This document shows, one piece after another, positions 1,733 through 8,879 of a stretch of DNA of 10,146 nt (the first letter of the stretch is position 1; every line of letters starts with the position of its first letter). A program made the translations under genes and the position numbers. Source of the DNA: Beijerinckiaceae bacterium (GTDB taxonomy: Bacteria > Pseudomonadota > Alphaproteobacteria > Rhizobiales > Beijerinckiaceae); contig DAIESR010000109.1 of assembly GCA_027346205.1 (NCBI GenBank), positions 1 through 10,146 on the forward strand, in the 5' to 3' direction. The notes below the pieces were generated by a model, which was not told the origin of the DNA, made no database searches, and worked only from the letters and a program-made list of their open reading frames with translations.

Positions 1733-1736
<4 letters not shown>

Positions 1737-2710
1737 CAGATTTAAAGCCGCAGACGGCGGCCGTCACGCGGCCGGTCTCGGACGAGGGGCGCGACGACCG
1801 GGTGCTGCCCTTCGCGGTCGAACCGCTGGATCTGCGCGGCCGCGTCGTGCGGCTTGGCGCCTCGGTCGATCGCATTCTTGGCCAGCATGATTATCCGGCG
1901 CCGGTCGCGCGTCTTCTCGGCGAGGCGGCTGTGCTCACCGCGCTGCTCGGATCGGCGTTGAAATTCGACGGAAGGCTGCAGCTGCAGACGCGCAGCGACG
2001 GCTTGGTCAATATGTTGGTCGTCGATTTCGACGCGCCAGATGGGCTGCGTGGCTTCGCGCGCTTTGATGCGGAAAGGCTCGCAGAGGTCGGACCAACAGC
2101 GGAGCTGCTCGGCAAGGGCCATCTCGCCTTGACGATCGAGCAGGGCAACGAGATGTCGCGTTATCAGGGCATTGTCGCGCTCGAAGGCCAGGGGCTGGAG
2201 GCGGCGGCGCATCAATATTTCCGCCAATCGGAGCAGATTCCGACTTTCGTGCGGCTGGCGGTCGCTGAAAGCCTCACCGGCGCCGGCATGGAATGGCGCG
2301 CCGGCGGCTTGATGGTGCAGTTCCTGCCGGCCTCGCGCGAGCGTCAGGTCATGCCCGATCTGCCGCCGGGCGATGCGCCGGAAGGCACGCTCGTGCCGGA
2401 AATGAAAGAGGACGATGCCTGGGTCGAAGCCAAGGCACTCGCTGCCACGGTCGAGGATCATGAGCTCGTCGATCCGACCCTGTCGAGCGAGCGTCTGCTC
2501 TATCGGCTGTTCCATGAGCGCGGCGTCAAGGTCTTCGAGACGCAGAATGTGCGGGCATCCTGCCGCTGCTCGCGCGAGCGCATCGCCAATATGCTGAAGA
2601 GCTTTACGCCGGATGAACGCAAGGACATGGTCGGGGATAATGGCAAGATCGGCGTGACCTGCGAATTCTGCTCCACTTTTCGCGAATTCGAGCCTGTGGA
2701 ATTCGACTAG
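1733..2710 (+). CDS. hslO: Hsp33 redox-regulated molecular chaperone
   Basis: Cytosolic holdase chaperone activated by oxidative unfolding. Four C-terminal cysteines bind zinc when reduced and form disulfides under oxidation plus heat, exposing the client-binding surface. The protein is 325 aa from this start, somewhat longer than the E. coli form (about 292 aa). The extra residues are mainly a charged N-terminal leader before the conserved LPFAVE segment. The zinc module is clear near the end: CRC, then 30 residues, then CEFC (CxC...CxxC). The reading frame is open upstream to 1595, but that part overlaps argF. The ATG at 1733 sits in an ATGA overlap with the argF stop, so it is the best start and implies coupling; no strong ribosome-binding site is visible. 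hslO downstream of argF is a known alphaproteobacterial arrangement. Confidence 0.95.
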
Positions 2711-2794
2711 CAGCGAAGGGTGAGGCCATTTCTTGGTCGTCACCCGCGGCGCGGCGATTGAAACGGTCTACGCCTTCTGGCGCGAGGTACGAGT

Positions 2795-3796
2795 ATGACA
2801 TCCAGTTCCCATGTCGCGACGCTTTTCTGCGATACGAGCTTTCCTGCTCTCGCCGAAAGACATCTTGCCCGCGCCGGCGAAGTCTTGCACACCAGCGAAG
2901 TCTTGGAGGCGCCGCAAGAGCCTGCTTGGCTCGATAAAGGGATCGCGGCCGATATTTCTTTTGCTTCCGCAGGCACGCTCGATTGCCGAGCGCTGGCTGA
3001 GAAGCTGCGCGGCGCGATCGCTGATCCACAGATAGATGTGATCGTCCAGCCGATCGAAGGACGAAGGAAAAAGCTGCTCTTCGCCGAAATGGACAAGGTT
3101 CTGATTGGTCAGAATACGCTCGACGAAATAGCATCAGTCATCGGTTGCGCGCCGCAGCACAATGAGATCCGCGCCAAGGTTGCCAATGGCGAGATTTCCT
3201 ATGCCGCTGGCTTGCGGGAGATTTTTGCATTTCTGCAAACCCGCAGGACGGACTGTCTTTCGCACGTGCTGGGCAAGAAAATGGCGATGACGCCCGGCGC
3301 GCGGGTGCTCGTCGAGACAATGCGCGCCCATGGCGCGACCGTGGCCTTGGCCACCTTTGGCTTTTCCTGTTTCGCGGGCCCGGTCGCCGGCAAGGCGGGC
3401 ATTACGGAAGTCATCGCGAACAAGCTCATCTTGGAGAATGATAAAATTGCGGCGCTTGCCGAACCCGTGCTCAACCCGGCCGGCAAGACGGTCTTTCTCG
3501 AGAGCTTGCTTGCGGCGCAGGTGATCGCAAGAAGCGATGTGCTCATGGTCGTCCATGACGCCGCCGATCTGCCGCTTCTCGACCATGTCGGCTGCGGCAT
3601 CGCTTTTCGTGCCGAAGCTCTGGTCACTGATGCGGCCACAGCGCGCATCGATCGTGGCGATCTCTCGGGGCTTCTCTACATCCAAGGTTATAGACGGGAA
3701 GATTTCGTGACCGAATCCAGCCGGCCGCTCGATGCCTCGGATTGGAAACGCAAATATGGCGGTTATGAAAAAGCCCATGAACGCACGCGGTTTTAG
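2795..3796 (+). CDS. Degenerate SerB-family HAD protein (phosphoserine phosphatase-like, probable pseudoenzyme)
   Basis: A 333-aa homologue of phosphoserine phosphatase (SerB). It has an N-terminal regulatory-like region (about 1-90), a HAD core (about 92-290) and the SerB tail GLLYIQGYRREDFV. The catalytic motifs are altered. Motif I, normally DMDST, reads EMDKV (98-102), so the nucleophilic Asp is Glu and the Ser/Thr pair is lost. Motif II, normally SGGF, reads TFGF (187-190). The motif III Lys is kept (K231). Motif IV, normally GDGANDL, reads VHDAADL (253-259), so the first metal-binding Asp is His254 while Asp258 remains. The Glu and Arg that bind phosphoserine in characterised enzymes appear as Asn107 and Ile143. 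The frame is intact, GC-rich and normally coded, so this looks like a retained protein rather than a decaying gene. GAGG at 2784-2787 precedes the ATG. It probably cannot make serine; a regulatory or binding role is inference. Confidence 0.85.
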   Translation: MTSSSHVATLFCDTSFPALAERHLARAGEVLHTSEVLEAPQEPAWLDKGIAADISFASAGTLDCRALAEKLRGAIADPQIDVIVQPIEGRRKKLLFAEMDKVLIGQNTLDEIASVIGCAPQHNEIRAKVANGEISYAAGLREIFAFLQTRRTDCLSHVLGKKMAMTPGARVLVETMRAHGATVALATFGFSCFAGPVAGKAGITEVIANKLILENDKIAALAEPVLNPAGKTVFLESLLAAQVIARSDVLMVVHDAADLPLLDHVGCGIAFRAEALVTDAATARIDRGDLSGLLYIQGYRREDFVTESSRPLDASDWKRKYGGYEKAHERTRF

Positions 3797-3842
3797 GGCT
3801 TTAGAGTATCCAACGCTCTAGAACGGCGAACGAACATTCAAA

Positions 3843-3952
3843 TGGAATCGGTGCTGCCGCTCTTGTCTTTTATTTTCGCACCAAACAATGAGAGCATGTC
3901 CTTTGTCGGAAAAGTCTAGCCAACTTTTCCGGGACATGCTCTGGCGATTCCA
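3843..3952. repeat. Nested palindromic intergenic repeat
   Basis: Three concentric inverted repeats are readable by eye. The outer pair is TGGAATCG (3843-3850) with CGATTCCA (3945-3952). The middle pair is AGAGCATGTCC (3891-3901) with GGACATGCTCT (3932-3942), an 11-base perfect match. The inner pair is CGGAAAAGT (3907-3915) with ACTTTTCCG (3923-3931), a 9-base perfect match around a 7-base loop. The GGAAAAGT core flanked by GAGCATG arms resembles dispersed palindromic elements widespread in rhizobial-order genomes. The RNA could fold into a long hairpin. A role as 3' processing or attenuation site for the upstream gene, or as a passive dispersed repeat, cannot be separated here. Confidence 0.75.
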
Positions 3953-4123
3953 AATGGGTGGGATGAGCTAAAGCGCGACATTTTATGGCTTAGGCCAATA
4001 TGTAGGCAGGCTCTTTTGCGCCATGTCTGGCTCAGAACCGCGGCGCACATTTTTTACTAAAAAATTAAGCTTGGCGCTTTTTTAGGCAGAGATAAAAGCA
4101 TTCTACGTGCTATAAGCAAAAAA

Positions 4124-4142
4124 CGGGCCGATAAGAGGCCCG
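4124..4142 (+). promoter_or_regulatory. Short stem-loop in the rpoN leader
   Basis: CGGGCC and GGCCCG pair perfectly around a 7-base GATAAGA loop, ending about 31 bases before the rpoN ATG. No U-tract follows, so it is not a standard terminator. It may shape the leader mRNA. Function is unproven. Confidence 0.3.
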
Positions 4143-4173
4143 GTCGGCGGGGTTGTAGACAGTTGATTTCGTA

Positions 4174-5736
4174 ATGGCGCTCACCACCAAGCTTCTCATG
4201 CGCCAGGGCCAAGCCCTGGTGATGACTCCGCAGCTTCTGCAGGCGATCAAACTTCTCCAGTTTTCCAATCTGGAACTCGCCGCTTTCGTCCAGGAGGAGC
4301 TCGAACGCAATCCGCTTCTCGAGCGGGCCGAGGACATGCCCGATCCATATGAGGCGAGCGGTGCCACGGGGCAGGACAGCGCAGCGGAGCGTATGGAGAT
4401 CGCCGGCGGTGATGATTTCAACGAGGCGAGCGAAGCCGATTGGCATGCCGACTCCTTTGCTACGGATCGTGGGAGCCTCGAGGCGAGCCTCGGCACGGAA
4501 TTGTCAAATACCTTCGACGATGATCGGGCGCCGACTCCCGGCGAACAGCACGATTATGTCGAAGGTGCGGGACTGTCGGCCACCTCCTGGTCAGGCTCGC
4601 CAGGGTCCACGGCTGACGGCGAGGCTACCAATCTTGAAGCCTATGTGGCGGCCGAGCTTGGCCTCAAGGATCATCTCGTCGCGCAATTGATGCTCGCGAT
4701 TTCCGATCCCATCGATCGCATCATCGGCCAGACGCTGATCGATTTGGTCGACGAGGCCGGTTATGTCACCGAGAGCCTTACCGAGATCGCGGGCCGGCTC
4801 GCTACGCCGATCGAGCGGGTCGAGAAGATCCTCGTGACGATCCAGACCTTCGATCCTTCCGGCATTGGGGCGCGCAATCTGGCCGAATGCCTCGCCATTC
4901 AATTGCGCGAAAAGGATCGTTTCGATCCGGCCATGCAAGCGCTCGTGGGGCATCTCGAACTCGTCGCCAAGCGCGATTTCGCGGCTCTTCGCAAAGTCTG
5001 TGGTGTCGATGATGAGGACATCGTCGACATGATCGCCGAGATCCGCCGGCTCGATCCGAAGCCCGGCCGCGCCTTCGGTGGCGCTTCCATTCAGCCAGTT
5101 GTGCCGGATGTCGTCGTCCAGTCCTTGCCGGACGGCACGTGGCATGTCGAACTGAATTCCGAGGTCCTGCCGCGTCTGCTTGTCAACCAGACCTATGCGA
5201 CAAGGGTGACGCGCAACAAGGCCAATGAGACCGACAAGAGTTTTCTCTCGAACTGCCTGCAGACCGCCAATTGGTTGACGAAGAGTCTCGAACAGAGAGC
5301 GCGCACCATATTGAAAGTGTCGAGCGAGATCGTGCGCCAGCAGGATGCCTTCTTCGCGCATGGCGTCGAGCATTTACGCCCGCTCAATCTCAAGACGATC
5401 GCCGATGCGATCGGCATGCACGAATCGACCGTCTCGCGGGTGACATCGAACAAATATATGGCGACCCCGCGCGGCCTATTCGAGTTGAAATATTTCTTCA
5501 CCGCCTCGATCGCCTCGCACAATGGCGGCGATGCGCATTCGGCCGAGGCTGTGCGTTTTCGTATCCGGCAGATGATCGATCAAGAAGATCCAGGCGATAT
5601 CCTCTCCGACGATGCGATCGTCGCGCGCCTCAAATCTTCCAATATCGATATTGCCCGCCGTACTGTCGCCAAATATCGTGAGAGCTTGCGCATCCCGTCT
5701 TCGGTCGAACGCCGCCGCATGAAGGCTGTGCATTGA
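4174..5736 (+). CDS. rpoN: RNA polymerase sigma-54 factor
   Basis: Alternative sigma factor that directs RNA polymerase to -24/-12 promoters and needs AAA+ activators; typical targets are nitrogen assimilation, nitrogen fixation and C4-dicarboxylate use. The protein is 520 aa, normal for the family. Region I is the glutamine-rich LVMTPQLLQAIKLLQ stretch (about residues 16-30) followed by ELERNPLLE. An acidic, low-conservation linker spans about 55-150. The core-binding domain follows, with TFDPSGIGARNLAECL and RRLDPKPGRAFGG. The helix-turn-helix region includes HESTVSRVTSNKYMATPRG (from residue 416). The RpoN box ARRTVAKYRE is at residues 494-503. The ATG at 4174 matches the conserved family N-terminus, yet no good Shine-Dalgarno lies before it. 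hpf and ptsN follow as in many proteobacteria; lptB, the usual upstream neighbour, is absent. Confidence 0.98.
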   Translation: MALTTKLLMRQGQALVMTPQLLQAIKLLQFSNLELAAFVQEELERNPLLERAEDMPDPYEASGATGQDSAAERMEIAGGDDFNEASEADWHADSFATDRGSLEASLGTELSNTFDDDRAPTPGEQHDYVEGAGLSATSWSGSPGSTADGEATNLEAYVAAELGLKDHLVAQLMLAISDPIDRIIGQTLIDLVDEAGYVTESLTEIAGRLATPIERVEKILVTIQTFDPSGIGARNLAECLAIQLREKDRFDPAMQALVGHLELVAKRDFAALRKVCGVDDEDIVDMIAEIRRLDPKPGRAFGGASIQPVVPDVVVQSLPDGTWHVELNSEVLPRLLVNQTYATRVTRNKANETDKSFLSNCLQTANWLTKSLEQRARTILKVSSEIVRQQDAFFAHGVEHLRPLNLKTIADAIGMHESTVSRVTSNKYMATPRGLFELKYFFTASIASHNGGDAHSAEAVRFRIRQMIDQEDPGDILSDDAIVARLKSSNIDIARRTVAKYRESLRIPSSVERRRMKAVH

Positions 5737-5746
5737 AATATGGCGC

Positions 5747-5785
5747 GCTGCCGTTTTTGGCAGGCACGGTAGCGTTAACGGCAGC
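5747..5785 (+). other. Possible stem-loop after rpoN
   Basis: GCTGCCG (5747-5753) is complementary to CGGCAGC (5779-5785). A smaller alternative hairpin, CTGCC/GGCAG, forms around a loop with a T-run. There is no T-tract after the stem, so intrinsic termination is doubtful. It could partially uncouple rpoN from hpf. Confidence 0.3.
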
Positions 5786-5872
5786 CATGGTCCCGTGACA
5801 TAGCTGCATGCTTTTAATCTTTCCATTCAATCCAGAAATGAACGATCTGCTCTAGATTTGCGAAATAGCATA

Positions 5873-5902
5873 CCAATATTGGGGCTGGCGGGTGCATATG
5901 CA
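5873..5902. promoter_or_regulatory. Two adjacent 10-base palindromes upstream of hpf
   Basis: CCAATATTGG (5873-5882) and TGCATATGCA (5893-5902) are both perfect palindromes with centres 20 bases apart, i.e. about two helical turns. They lie in the 299-base gap between rpoN and hpf. This spacing suits two dimeric regulator sites on one DNA face, but no known operator is recognised and chance is possible. Confidence 0.3.
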
Positions 5903-5941
5903 GCGCATCTAGAATGCGGTGCAACGGGTTCAAGCCGCCCA

Positions 5942-5970
5942 TTGACTTCGCGGCGAGACGCTCCTAACCC
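5942..5970 (+). promoter_or_regulatory. Weak candidate sigma-70 promoter for hpf
   Basis: TTGACT at 5942-5947 is a good -35 match. A poor -10 (around TAACCC, from 5965) follows at 17-base spacing, about 65 bases before the hpf start. The long gap after rpoN makes an independent hpf promoter likely, but this exact assignment is tentative. Confidence 0.3.
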
Positions 5971-6035
5971 TGAAATCAAATGCTCGATAAAGGGCAAGAG
6001 TTGAGGGGGCGGCGCTGCTGATTGGAGAGAAAGCC

Positions 6036-6626
6036 ATGACCTTACGCGTCTCCGGCAAGAATCTCGATATCGGGGAGTCGCTTCGCAACCATGTAGGCGC
6101 TCGCCTTGATGCTGTGGTTGCGAAATATTCCGCTGAGCCGGTGAGCGGACATGTCACCATTGAAAGAGAAGGCTCTGGCTTTCGGGCAGATTGCAGCCTG
6201 TATTTCGACTCCGGCATAATTCTGCAAGTTGAGGCGGAAGCGCAGGATGCCTATGTGAGCTTTAACAAGGCTGCGGACCGGATCGAAAATCGGCTGCGGC
6301 GCTTGAAGGGTCGTTTGCGTGATCGCGGGAGCGGCGTGGCCAATTCGTATCGCATCGTCGAAGGGTTGTCCGCCGTCACAATCGACAGCGATGTGGCGGA
6401 GCCGGAAATCACCGAGGATATAAATCCGCTTGTCATTGCCGAGTCATTTGCCAGGCTCAAGGAAATGTCGGTTTCCTCGGCGGTCCAAGAACTCGATGTC
6501 ACCAATGCGCCGGTCGTCATATTCCGCCATGCGGGGGATGGGCGCACGAATATCGTCTATCGCCGGGCCGATGGACACATCGGCTGGATCGATACAGCCG
6601 CTTCATCCGGGAGTTCTGCTCTCTGA
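6036..6626 (+). CDS. hpf: Ribosome hibernation promoting factor, long form
   Basis: Binds the 30S decoding centre in starved or stationary cells and, in its long form, dimerises 70S ribosomes into inactive 100S particles. The protein is 196 aa. The N-terminal S30AE (RaiA-like) domain spans about 1-105. It opens with the conserved MTLRVSGKNLDIGESLRNH segment and contains AYVSFNKAADRIENRLRRLK. A variable linker runs from about 106 to 135. The C-terminal dimerisation domain (about 140-190) contains APVVIFRH and YRRADGHIGWIDT. The start ATG at 6036 has GGAGAG at 6024-6029 upstream at good spacing. It sits between rpoN and ptsN, the usual place. The two-domain architecture separates it from the short enterobacterial HPF and YfiA proteins. 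Confidence 0.96.
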   Translation: MTLRVSGKNLDIGESLRNHVGARLDAVVAKYSAEPVSGHVTIEREGSGFRADCSLYFDSGIILQVEAEAQDAYVSFNKAADRIENRLRRLKGRLRDRGSGVANSYRIVEGLSAVTIDSDVAEPEITEDINPLVIAESFARLKEMSVSSAVQELDVTNAPVVIFRHAGDGRTNIVYRRADGHIGWIDTAASSGSSAL

Positions 6627-6656
6627 CAAAGGAGGGTGACGGGGGAACCCGGATCT

Positions 6657-7199
6657 ATGTCCCAGCCTCATTTTTCCACGCAGCGCATCATGACCATTTC
6701 GTCGAGCGTTCGAAGATTGGACGTGCCTCTTCCCATGCGGCTCACAGATCTTCTTCAACCCGAAGCGGTGGTGGCTTCGTTTCGTGCCAGTTCCAAGAAG
6801 CAATTGTTGCACGAGTTAAGCGAAAAGGCGGCGCATATCTCTCATTTGCCGGCGCGCCAGATTTTCGATTCCGTGCTTCAGCGCGAGCGGCTCGGTTCGA
6901 CCGGCATCGGCAATGGCATCGCCATCCCGCATGCGAAGCTCGAAAAATGCCCTTCGATCATCGGGGTTTTCGCGCGGCTCGAAAAGCCGGTCGATTTCGA
7001 GGCGGTCGACGGGACGCCGGTCGATCTCGTCTTTCTGTTGCTCGCACCTGAATCGGCGGGAGCCGATCATTTGAAGGCTTTGGCACGGATCGCGCGCGTG
7101 CTGCGCGACCCGGCCATCATCGCGAAATTGCGCGCCATTCAAGATCCGGCAGCTCTCTATGCCGTGTTGACGCAGGAGCCGACCTCGCACGCGGCTTGA
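6657..7199 (+). CDS. ptsN: Nitrogen-regulatory PTS EIIA component (EIIA-Ntr)
   Basis: Phospho-acceptor of the nitrogen PTS (PtsP/NPr/EIIA-Ntr). It transmits cell nitrogen and carbon state to targets such as potassium transport and stress regulators rather than importing sugar. The conserved domain begins at MRLTDLLQPEAVV (ATG 6735). It contains LQRERLGSTGIGNGIAIPH, in which the phosphorylated His is codon 6930-6932, then VDLVFLLLAPES and GADHLKALARIARVLRD. From ATG 6735 the protein would be 154 aa with His66, the common alphaproteobacterial size, but that ATG has no Shine-Dalgarno. ATG 6657 (180 aa) has GGGGGA at 6641-6646 and is given here as a compromise. A GTG at 6636 directly abuts a GGAGG and is too close to use it. 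It follows hpf after a short gap and is probably cotranscribed. Confidence 0.93.
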   Translation: MSQPHFSTQRIMTISSSVRRLDVPLPMRLTDLLQPEAVVASFRASSKKQLLHELSEKAAHISHLPARQIFDSVLQRERLGSTGIGNGIAIPHAKLEKCPSIIGVFARLEKPVDFEAVDGTPVDLVFLLLAPESAGADHLKALARIARVLRDPAIIAKLRAIQDPAALYAVLTQEPTSHAA

Positions 7200-7262
7200 C
7201 GGCCAAGCCGGCGCCTCGGCCGTGTTAGAGCGGCGAGGCTCGCAGAAGGAGCTTCGTTCAAG

Positions 7263-8879
7263 ATGAGTTTTCAATTCGCTCCGCTCTTCCCGCTCGGGCC
7301 GGATACGACACCTTATCGTAAGCTCACGTCGTCGGGCGTGCATGCCGAGAAATTCGGTGCGCATGAGATGCTGGTCGTCGAGCCCGAAGCGTTGCGGCTC
7401 TTGGCCGAGACCGCGATGATCGACATCAATCATCTGCTGCGGCCGAGCCATCTCGCCCAACTTGCTTCTATTCTCGAAGATCCCGAAGCGACGGAGAATG
7501 ACAAATTCGTTGCCTATGATCTTTTGAAGAACGCCAATATCGCGGCAGGTGGCGTGCTGCCCATGTGTCAGGACACGGGCACCGCCATCATTGTCGCCAA
7601 GAAAGGCCGTCTCGTCTTCACCGAGGGCGACGACGATGCTGCTCTCGCGCAAGGCATCAAGGATGCCTATGAGAAAAAGAATCTGCGCTATTCACAGCTT
7701 GCGCCGCTGTCCATGTTCGAAGAGGTCAACACCAAGACCAATCTGCCGGCGCAGATCGAAATTTATAGCGAAGGCGAAGAGGCTTATAAATTCCTCTTCA
7801 TCGCAAAGGGCGGCGGCTCGGCCAACAAGACCTTCCTCTATCAGGCAACGCCCTCGGTGCTGACGCATGACCGTCTCATGGACTTCCTCAAAGAGAAGAT
7901 CCTCACGCTCGGCACCGCCGCCTGTCCGCCCTATCATCTCGCGATTGTCATTGGTGGCACTTCGGCGGAACTGACATTGAAGACGGTCAAGCTCGCTTCG
8001 ACACGCTATTACGACAACCTGCCGACGCAGGGTGGCGCGGATGCGCATGCCTTCCGCGATCTCGCGATGGAAGCCGAGATCCACAAGCTCACACAGGATC
8101 TCGGCGTCGGCGCACAGTTCGGCGGCAAATATTTTTGCCATGATGTGCGCGTCATCCGCTTGCCGAGGCATGGCGCATCATTGCCGATCGGCCTCGGCGT
8201 CTCTTGCGCGGCGGATCGACAGGCGCTCGGCAAGATCACGAAAGAGGGCGTCTTCGTCGAAGAGCTCGAACATGACCCTGCGAAATATCTACCGCCGATC
8301 GATGAGGCGTCGCTCGTAGGCACAGTCGTGCAAATCGATCTGTCGAAGCCCATGCTTGAAATTCTGGCGACCTTGTCGAGATATCCGATCAAGACGCGGT
8401 TGTCGCTGACCGGCACGATGATCGTCGCGCGCGATCTTGCCCATGCCAAGATCCGCGAAAGACTCGAACGCGGCGAGCCCATGCCGGATTATTTCAAGAA
8501 CCATACGATCTATTATGCCGGCCCGGCGAAGACGCCGGCGGGCTATGCCTCGGGCTCCTTCGGGCCGACGACCGCTGGACGCATGGATTCCTATGTCGAG
8601 CAATTTCAGGCGGCCGGCGGCTCGCTGATCATGGTTGCCAAGGGCAATCGCTCGGCGCAAGTGCGGCGAGCCTGCGCCGAGCATCACGGCTTCTATCTCG
8701 GCTCGGTCGGTGGGGCGGCGGCGCGGCTCGCCCAGGATTGCATCAAAAAGGTCGAGGTTCTGGAATATCCCGAGCTCGGCATGGAAGCGATCTGGAAGAT
8801 CGAGGTCGAGAATTTTCCGGCCTTTATCGTCATCGACGACAAGGGCAATGATTTCTTCAAGGAATTGAATTTGGGTTGA
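7263..8879 (+). CDS. fumA: Class I fumarate hydratase, [4Fe-4S]-dependent
   Basis: Iron-sulfur fumarase that interconverts fumarate and malate in the TCA cycle. It is oxygen- and superoxide-sensitive, unlike class II FumC. The protein is 538 aa, a full single-chain form with fused alpha and beta parts. Three cluster-ligand Cys candidates are visible: C102 in PMCQDTG, C221 in AACPPYH and C315 in GVSCAADRQ. Other hallmarks are [34 protein letters not shown], and the C-terminal beta-part segments [20 protein letters not shown] and [15 protein letters not shown]. The ATG at 7263 is preceded by AAGGAG (7246-7251). It lies 63 bases after ptsN in the same direction, so read-through or its own promoter are both possible. 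Related class I enzymes acting on other hydroxyacids are less likely given length and motifs. Confidence 0.95.

What the first reader, a model, noticed from the sequence alone, without database searches (positions are those of the whole stretch)
2795..3796. SerB homologue with nearly all catalytic motifs rewritten: a likely phosphoserine-phosphatase pseudoenzyme
Overall similarity to SerB is obvious (MTPGARVLVETMRAHGA-like segment, FAGPVAGKAG, GLLYIQGYRREDFV), but key positions are changed. Motif I DxDST is E98-M-D100-K-V. SGGF is TFGF. GDGAND is V-H254-D-A-A-D258. The phosphoserine-binding Glu and Arg positions read Asn107 and Ile143. Known HAD chemistry needs the first Asp as nucleophile, so phosphatase activity is unlikely. 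The frame is intact over 333 codons with ordinary codon use, so the protein seems to be maintained. It could bind a ligand through the N-terminal ACT-like region, regulate the true SerB, or have a new activity. A second, canonical serB should then exist elsewhere.
Basis: partly seen in the sequence, partly recalled or inferred. Interest (0 to 1): 0.75.

Follow-up and report, generated by a model that had tools for sequence, protein, structure and literature searches.

The report
Conserved, catalytically dead-looking serine phosphatase paralogue
Some Methylovirgula soil bacteria keep an extra copy of the last serine-making enzyme whose active site has been taken apart while its sensor-like front end and its tail stay unusually constant, so it looks like a retired enzyme kept for another, still unknown job.

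Summary
Window 2795-3796 (+) encodes an intact 333-aa SerB-family protein with Glu for the nucleophilic Asp, no first motif-IV Asp, and the phosphoserine-binding Glu and Arg replaced. It is neither a one-off nor decay: 16 full-length proteins form one branch with SH-aLRT 100, and dN/dS against the orthologue in Methylovirgula sp. HY1 is 0.13, within the range of five other genes. 'Nearly all motifs' is too strong: D100, T187, K231 and D258 are kept in 16 of 16. New here: constraint is inverted. The ACT-like N-domain and the C-terminal tail are more conserved than in active relatives, the HAD domain less. HY1 also has two SerBs with canonical catalytic residues, one beside serC-serA. In the window's 86.8%-complete assembly serA is cut at a contig end and serC and canonical serB were not found, probably an assembly gap. 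Best reading: a maintained SerB pseudoenzyme that acts by binding. Activity, ligand and partner are untested. New variant of a known kind.

The parts
2795..3796 (+). pseudo-serB (working name pSerB): SerB-family protein, 333 aa, degraded HAD active site
   Evidence: ORF; TIGR00338 103 bits against a cut-off of 144.15; 16-member clade
2810..3052 (+). N-terminal ACT-like domain, residues 6-86, beta-alpha-beta-beta-alpha-beta; more conserved in this clade than in tailed active SerBs
   Evidence: AlphaFold2 model, mean pLDDT 92.9; model residues 1-310 align with M. avium SerB2 residues 93-400; conservation
3086..3100 (+). motif I, E98-M-D100-K-V102 in place of D-x-D-S-T
   Evidence: E in 15 of 16 clade members, D100 in 16 of 16
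3113..3115 (+). N107, position of the Glu that binds the phosphoserine amino group (MjPSP Glu20)
   Evidence: alignment; role from PMC6321591 passages; N 11, D 2, T 2, S 1 in the clade
3221..3223 (+). I143, position of the substrate-binding Arg (MjPSP Arg56)
   Evidence: F 9, I 3, V 2, S 2 in the clade
3353..3364 (+). motif II region T187-F-G-F190 in place of S-G-G-F; Thr in 16 of 16 of the clade
3485..3487 (+). K231, motif III Lys, kept in 16 of 16
3551..3568 (+). motif IV V253-H254-D-A-A-D258 in place of G-D-G-A-N-D; first (Mg-ligand) Asp lost in 16 of 16, second Asp kept in 16 of 16
3734..3787 (+). C-terminal helix 314-331 (segment LDASDWKRKYGxYEKAHERTR), the most conserved of the regions compared, shared with Methylocapsa/Beijerinckia-type active SerBs
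   Evidence: helix in the model at low confidence, pLDDT blocks 67, 60, 47
4174..5736 (+). rpoN (sigma-54), followed by hpf (6036-6626), ptsN (ORF 6636-7199) and a fumarate hydratase gene (7263-8879); the order pSerB-rpoN-hpf-ptsN-fum is shared with Methylovirgula sp. HY1
   Evidence: gene names are my reading of the proteins
1733..2710 (+). hslO (argD-argF-hslO block upstream); next to pSerB in the window's genome, not in HY1
   Evidence: gene names are my reading

Best explanation
It is a maintained pseudoenzyme of the phosphoserine phosphatase family. A SerB, probably of the tailed Methylocapsa/Beijerinckia type, came to lie just upstream of rpoN in one Methylovirgula sublineage, lost the phosphoserine-specific and Mg-binding residues, and was kept for a binding role. 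The most likely mechanism: the ACT-like N-terminal domain senses a small molecule (serine or a related amino acid is the obvious candidate) and mediates oligomerisation; the C-terminal helix docks on a partner; the HAD domain is a folded scaffold that may still hold an anion or phosphate through D100, T187, K231 and D258 but does not turn over phosphoserine. Shown: intact frame, clade, loss and retention of specific residues, purifying selection in one genome pair, shift of constraint to N-domain and tail, canonical SerB copies in one host genome. Predicted by model: SerB fold with an ACT-like domain. Inferred: lack of activity, ligand, partner, source of the gene, and any regulatory effect.
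Against: No biochemical data. Four active-site residues are kept in 16 of 16 and position 98 is acidic in 16 of 16 (15 Glu, 1 Asp), which a pure scaffold would not need, so some pocket function may be retained. Serine-binding residues of the N-domain were not examined; the ACT label rests on predicted topology and fold match, with no Pfam ACT hit in any of 91 rows. The tail is present in active SerBs too, so it is not specific to a new role, and the two canonical SerBs of HY1 lack it, which weakens the idea of direct mixed oligomers through it. The gene was not found in 9 of 11 genomes of the genus, three of them at least 97% complete, so it appears dispensable in the genus. The tree does not settle the source of the clade.
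Confidence: 0.6

Rival explanations
1. A new enzyme: the pocket was rebuilt for another phosphorylated or carboxylated substrate, with Glu98, Asp100, Thr187, Lys231 and Asp258 as the working set, and the substrate-selecting residues replaced mostly by hydrophobic ones (Phe/Ile/Val at 143, aromatic at 188).
For: These five positions are kept in 15 (Glu98) or 16 of 16; position 188 is Tyr or Phe in 13 of 16 and 143 is Phe, Ile or Val in 14 of 16; a clade-specific GFSCFAGPVA segment is nearly invariant.
Against: The first motif-IV Asp, an Mg ligand, is lost in 16 of 16 and replaced by H, A, N, S or Y, and positions 253, 255, 256 and 257 vary; motif IV pairwise identity is 0.48 against 0.90 in tailed active SerBs. 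No working HAD enzyme with Glu as nucleophile is known to me (recall). Constraint has moved away from the HAD domain.
Confidence: 0.2
2. It is still a weak phosphoserine phosphatase, or a phosphoserine- or phosphate-binding protein that buffers the pathway.
For: The general acid/base Asp, motif III Lys and motif II Thr are kept; Glu98 is a carboxylate; 2 of 16 have Asp at the binding-Glu position.
Against: [quoted passage not shown] roles from PMC6321591 passages).
Confidence: 0.08
3. A decaying or recently dead gene with no function.
For: Not found in 9 of 11 genomes of the genus; motif IV is drifting.
Against: 16 of 16 sequences are full length without stops; dN/dS 0.13 with dS about 1.2; N-domain and tail more conserved than in active relatives; pSerB next to rpoN in both genomes where this could be seen.
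Confidence: 0.04
4. Its partner or target is the sigma-54/PTS-Ntr block downstream (rpoN-hpf-ptsN): it tunes nitrogen- or carbon-responsive regulation rather than serine synthesis.
For: pSerB lies directly upstream of rpoN, same strand, in both genomes seen.
Against: Only two genomes could be checked. The gap to rpoN is 377 bp in the window and 241 bp in HY1, and a stretch just before rpoN looks alike in the two, which suggests a promoter of its own for rpoN. In five other genus members truA stands directly before rpoN, so in HY1 the gene may have landed there by chance.
Confidence: 0.08

Closest known systems
SerB phosphoserine phosphatase, alphaproteobacterial type (Brucella melitensis SerB, PDB 7qpl/9fq5)
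   Different: Asp nucleophile is Glu, first motif-IV Asp lost, substrate Glu and Arg lost, extra C-terminal helix; below the TIGR00338 cut-off, 103 against 144.15 bits.
Tailed SerB of Methylocapsa and Beijerinckia (for example P0018, Methylocapsa acidiphila; 34 such rows)
   Same: Up to 49% identity and the same C-terminal DWKRKYGAxEKAHERTR segment.
   Different: Asp at 98, 100 and 254 (no such row is among the exceptions printed); N-domain less and HAD domain more conserved; in the four tailed loci read (L033, L034, L036, L066) none of the window's genes lies within about 6 kb.
SerB2 of Mycobacterium (ACT-ACT-PSP)
   Different: Two ACT domains there, one here; active enzyme there.
Pseudophosphatases of the HAD superfamily in general (e.g. 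Tim50-type proteins; recalled, no call)
   Same: HAD fold kept with catalytic residues lost and a binding role.
   Different: Different HAD branch; no SerB pseudoenzyme appeared in the paper listings made here.

Membership tests
Phosphoserine phosphatase SerB (active enzyme) | SerB fold: HAD Rossmannoid core with C1 cap | tested here: met
Phosphoserine phosphatase SerB (active enzyme) | Nucleophilic Asp in DxDxT motif I | tested here: not met
   ExDxV in the window; Glu in 15 of 16 clade members, Asp in 1 (P0010)
Phosphoserine phosphatase SerB (active enzyme) | Substrate-binding Glu and Arg (MjPSP Glu20, Arg56) | tested here: not met
   N107 and I143; replaced in 16 of 16
Phosphoserine phosphatase SerB (active enzyme) | Motif III Lys and second motif IV Asp | tested here: met
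   K231 and D258 in 16 of 16
Phosphoserine phosphatase SerB (active enzyme) | First motif IV Asp (Mg ligand) | tested here: not met
   H254; lost in 16 of 16
Phosphoserine phosphatase SerB (active enzyme) | Curated equivalog score TIGR00338 at or above 144.15 bits | tested here: not met
   103 bits
Phosphoserine phosphatase SerB (active enzyme) | Hydrolysis of phosphoserine | not testable with these tools
   Needs purified protein
ACT-domain regulatory proteins | Beta-alpha-beta-beta-alpha-beta N-domain | tested here: met
   Elements E6-11 H21-33 E44-47 E51-58 H64-75 E81-86 in the predicted model; model 1-310 aligns with M. avium SerB2 93-400
ACT-domain regulatory proteins | Match to a curated ACT profile | tested here: not met
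   No Pfam ACT match up to E 0.1 in the window protein or in any of 91 aligned relatives, active SerBs included
ACT-domain regulatory proteins | Amino-acid binding | not testable with these tools
   Needs a ligand-binding assay
Maintained pseudoenzyme | Catalytic residues lost consistently in a clade of intact orthologues | tested here: met
   16 of 16 full length, one branch
Maintained pseudoenzyme | Purifying selection | tested here: met
   dN/dS 0.13 between two genomes
Maintained pseudoenzyme | Paralogue with intact catalytic residues in the same genome | tested here: met
   Two in HY1 by sequence; not found in the window's draft genome, where the serC-serB region is missing
Maintained pseudoenzyme | Absence of the ancestral activity | not testable with these tools
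   Needs purified protein
Pseudogene | Frameshifts, stops or dN/dS near 1 | tested here: not met
   No stop or truncation in 16 sequences; dN/dS 0.13

The most novel reading that the evidence does not exclude
The clade is a free-standing serine-family sensor made out of a biosynthetic enzyme: an ACT-like sensor domain and a tail helix under stronger constraint than in the active enzyme, carried on a dead HAD scaffold, that adjusts serine supply to the serine cycle of methylotrophs (or the adjacent sigma-54 circuit).
Probability: 0.25. Interest if true: 0.7.

Novelty: new variant of a known kind. Interest (0 to 1): 0.5.

Why it matters
Pseudoenzymes are well studied among kinases and some phosphatases (general knowledge). 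A bacterial one derived from a core amino-acid biosynthetic phosphatase, with a clear record of which parts were kept and which let go, is a clean case for asking what a metabolic enzyme does once catalysis is gone. The named host, Methylovirgula sp. HY1, carries soluble methane monooxygenase genes according to a pangenome paper (PMC11237726, passages); in such organisms serine is also a carrier in one-carbon assimilation (serine cycle; general knowledge), so a non-catalytic serine-pathway protein would be a plausible control point. HY1 has a complete genome and intact SerB paralogues, so tests are possible.

Tried and rejected
Rejected: decay (intact frames, dN/dS, inverted constraint). Rejected: an assembly oddity of one metagenome sequence (the orthologue is in the HY1 genome). 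Rejected: a conserved link to hslO; in HY1 the neighbours are truA and rpoN, and hslO lies elsewhere.

Not resolved: the origin of the clade. The C-terminal tail points to the tailed Methylocapsa/Beijerinckia SerBs, but the tree alone does not reject a group with Methylovirgula's own canonical SerBs (p-AU 0.39), and holding the clade together with the tailed SerBs and the G019/G083 pair gave a tree 2.4 log units better than the free one, p-AU 0.54, which shows nothing either way. Columns filled in under 70% of rows, which should include the tail, were left out of the tree. The tree used 85 selected rows (16 clade, 33 tailed, 8 genus, 28 others), quick method, SH-aLRT only.

Rfam: 0 matches at gathering scores. 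Promoter scan of 2500-4400: 0 sigma-70-like sites; 5 terminator-like sites against 2.5 expected. Tail searched in 7 genomes: apart from the SerB-family tails in 4 of them, the best match had E 0.7. Paper searches (listings only) showed no report of a SerB pseudoenzyme; they cover only the held open-licence library, and only 10 of 15 hits were listed. The paper search on strain RH AL1 (passages) was a wrong guess at the organism. The genomic context of P0001-P0014 could not be fetched, so the rpoN link rests on two genomes.

Full report
What is there. The ORF at 2795-3796 (+) is real, 333 codons with an ATG start and no internal stop. It matches phosphoserine phosphatase models (TIGR00338, E 1.7e-29) but falls below the curated cut-off, 103 against 144.15 bits, and its best solved relative is Brucella melitensis SerB. 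In the alignment to M. jannaschii PSP, E98, D100, N107, A130, Y136, I143, T187, K231, H254, A257 and D258 stand where Asp11, Asp13, Glu20, Met43, Phe49, Arg56, Ser99, Lys144, Asp167, Asn170 and Asp171 stand. Roles read in passages of PMC6321591: Asp11 takes the phosphate; Asp11 and Asp167 bind Mg; Asp13 is the general acid/base; Glu20 and Arg56 hold the amino acid part; Ser99, Lys144, Asn170 and Asp171 help to position the groups. (Met43 and Phe49 as pocket residues are recalled.) So the acceptor, one metal ligand and both substrate-selecting residues are changed; the general acid/base, motif II hydroxyl, motif III Lys and second motif IV acid are kept.

It is a clade. In two searches of 5.8 billion proteins, 14 proteins stand apart at 56-94% identity, then comes a gap to SerBs at 49% and below. 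Each search scored about 8000 candidates and listed the best 120 (of 1175 and 758); the second, with the clade's own profile, added no member. In a search of 397 genomes drawn from the family, only the window's genome and G007 score as members (611 and 616 bits; next 367, the tailed SerB of G211). With G007 and the window this makes 16; they include two near-duplicate pairs (window and P0001; G007 and P0002). All are full length, 327-344 aa. Glu98 is in 15 of 16; P0010 has Asp98 but T, F and A at 107, 143 and 254. D100, T187, K231 and D258 are in 16 of 16. In 224 of 225 rows outside the clade position 98 is Asp, the last row being a truncated fragment. The tree of 85 selected rows puts the 16 on one branch, length 0.84, SH-aLRT 100.

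Which organism. G007's second contig (278,037 bp) is identical over the 18,000 bases tested to plasmid NZ_CP073765.1 of Methylovirgula sp. HY1, whose record has the same length. A pangenome paper lists HY1 with soluble methane monooxygenase genes (PMC11237726, passages). The window's genome is in the same genus by the tool's code; it is a draft of 579 contigs, 86.8% complete.

Selection. Between the window and HY1, pSerB has dN/dS 0.135 (NG86) or 0.128 (YN00), with differences per codon position of 0.18, 0.11 and 0.48. Five other genes of the same pair (rpoN, hpf, fum, hslO, argF) give 0.053-0.187 by NG86; YN00 gave 0.033-0.206 for four of them and failed for hslO. dS is about 1.2, so the ratio is rough, but neutral decay does not fit.

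Where the constraint went. I compared 14 clade members (two near-duplicates, P0001 and the HY1 protein, left out) with 34 active-type SerBs that carry the same tail. Mean site homozygosity, clade against active: N-domain 6-88, 0.702 v 0.569 (77 sites, Wilcoxon p 5e-4); HAD 90-303, 0.620 v 0.731 (214 sites, p 7e-6); tail 310-332, 0.906 v 0.810 (23 sites, p 0.02). N-domain minus HAD is +0.08 in the clade; in 500 random 14-row subsets of the tailed active SerBs the maximum was -0.12, and in 500 subsets of the wider canonical set -0.185. Pairwise identity in motif IV is 0.48 against 0.90 (25 of the 34 tailed rows). Sites in a protein and related sequences are not independent, so the p-values are indicative; the sign change is the robust part.

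Other serB genes. HY1 has two further SerBs with canonical motif I and GDGAND: one divergent from serC-serA, one beside miaA in which SGGF reads SSGL. In the window's genome the serB model found only pSerB and one weak match (25 bits) inside a 671-codon frame, and the PF12710 search one other HAD protein on contig C179 that the serB model did not report. Its serA is cut at the end of a 5,050-base contig and serC was not found. In HY1 and in G003 the order is serA-serC-serB, so the canonical serB most likely lies in the missing part. This is inference.

Neighbourhood. In five genus members (G002, G005, G006, G008, G010) truA is directly followed by rpoN. In HY1 pSerB sits between truA and rpoN, and rpoN-hpf-ptsN-fum follows. 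In the window pSerB is again just before rpoN-hpf-ptsN-fum, but upstream lies hslO. G003, with the same rpoN-hpf-ptsN-fum order, has no pSerB. In G019 of the same family, whose SerB has Asp98 and GDGAND and only a diverged tail, that SerB lies on the opposite strand about 1.9 kb beyond fum of the same rpoN-hpf-ptsN-fum block, so a serB near this block is not unique to the clade. The gene entered, or was kept, upstream of rpoN in a sublineage, and its upstream side was rearranged in one of the two genomes. The tail shared with Methylocapsa/Beijerinckia SerBs, absent from the two canonical SerBs of HY1 and from those of G001, G003 and G004 whose ends I read, suggests the source; the tree does not settle it.

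Verdict. The finding is real and the pseudoenzyme reading is well supported by sequence, clade, selection and predicted fold. Function, ligand and partner remain to be tested, and the known distribution is narrow.

Noticed in passing
window 3890-3945: Imperfect palindrome (GAGCATGTCC...GGGACATGCTC) between pSerB and rpoN; a similar one lies between truA and pSerB in HY1 (L113). Resembles dispersed intergenic palindromes of Rhizobiales (recall); may have helped the rearrangement.
   Followed up: partly
L115:5991-6920 (Methylovirgula sp. HY1): A second canonical-type SerB with motif II SSGL instead of SGGF on a long branch (0.58): possibly an earlier stage of divergence in a genome that already has two other SerB-family genes.
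   Followed up: partly
L022 (G004:C67:1044-1928): The only SerB found in this 60%-complete draft of the genus keeps DMDST and GDGAND but has Gly at the substrate-Arg position, Val at 130 and 136 and SSSF at motif II; long branch 0.93.
   Followed up: partly
G002:C81, G004:C67, G006:C5, G009:C209: In these four genus members a serB lies convergent to hslO, whereas in G003 hslO is followed by miaA and in HY1 by another gene, and their serC-adjacent serB lies elsewhere; the region after hslO varies, and in the window it holds pSerB.
   Followed up: partly
L116 (G019) 2809-7310; L035/L213 (G083): An active-type SerB lies on the opposite strand close to fum of the rpoN-hpf-ptsN-fum block in G019, and near the fum end on a short contig of G083: possibly an older link between serB and this block.
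   Followed up: partly
window 4124-4142 (-): Terminator-like stem with T run on the minus strand between pSerB and rpoN, within the stretch that looks alike in HY1; as a DNA palindrome it may belong to rpoN's leader.
   Followed up: no
P0010 in A1/A2: A clade member with Asp at the nucleophile position (DMDKV) but T, F and A at 107, 143 and 254; nested in the clade, so probably a Glu-to-Asp change within it.
   Followed up: partly
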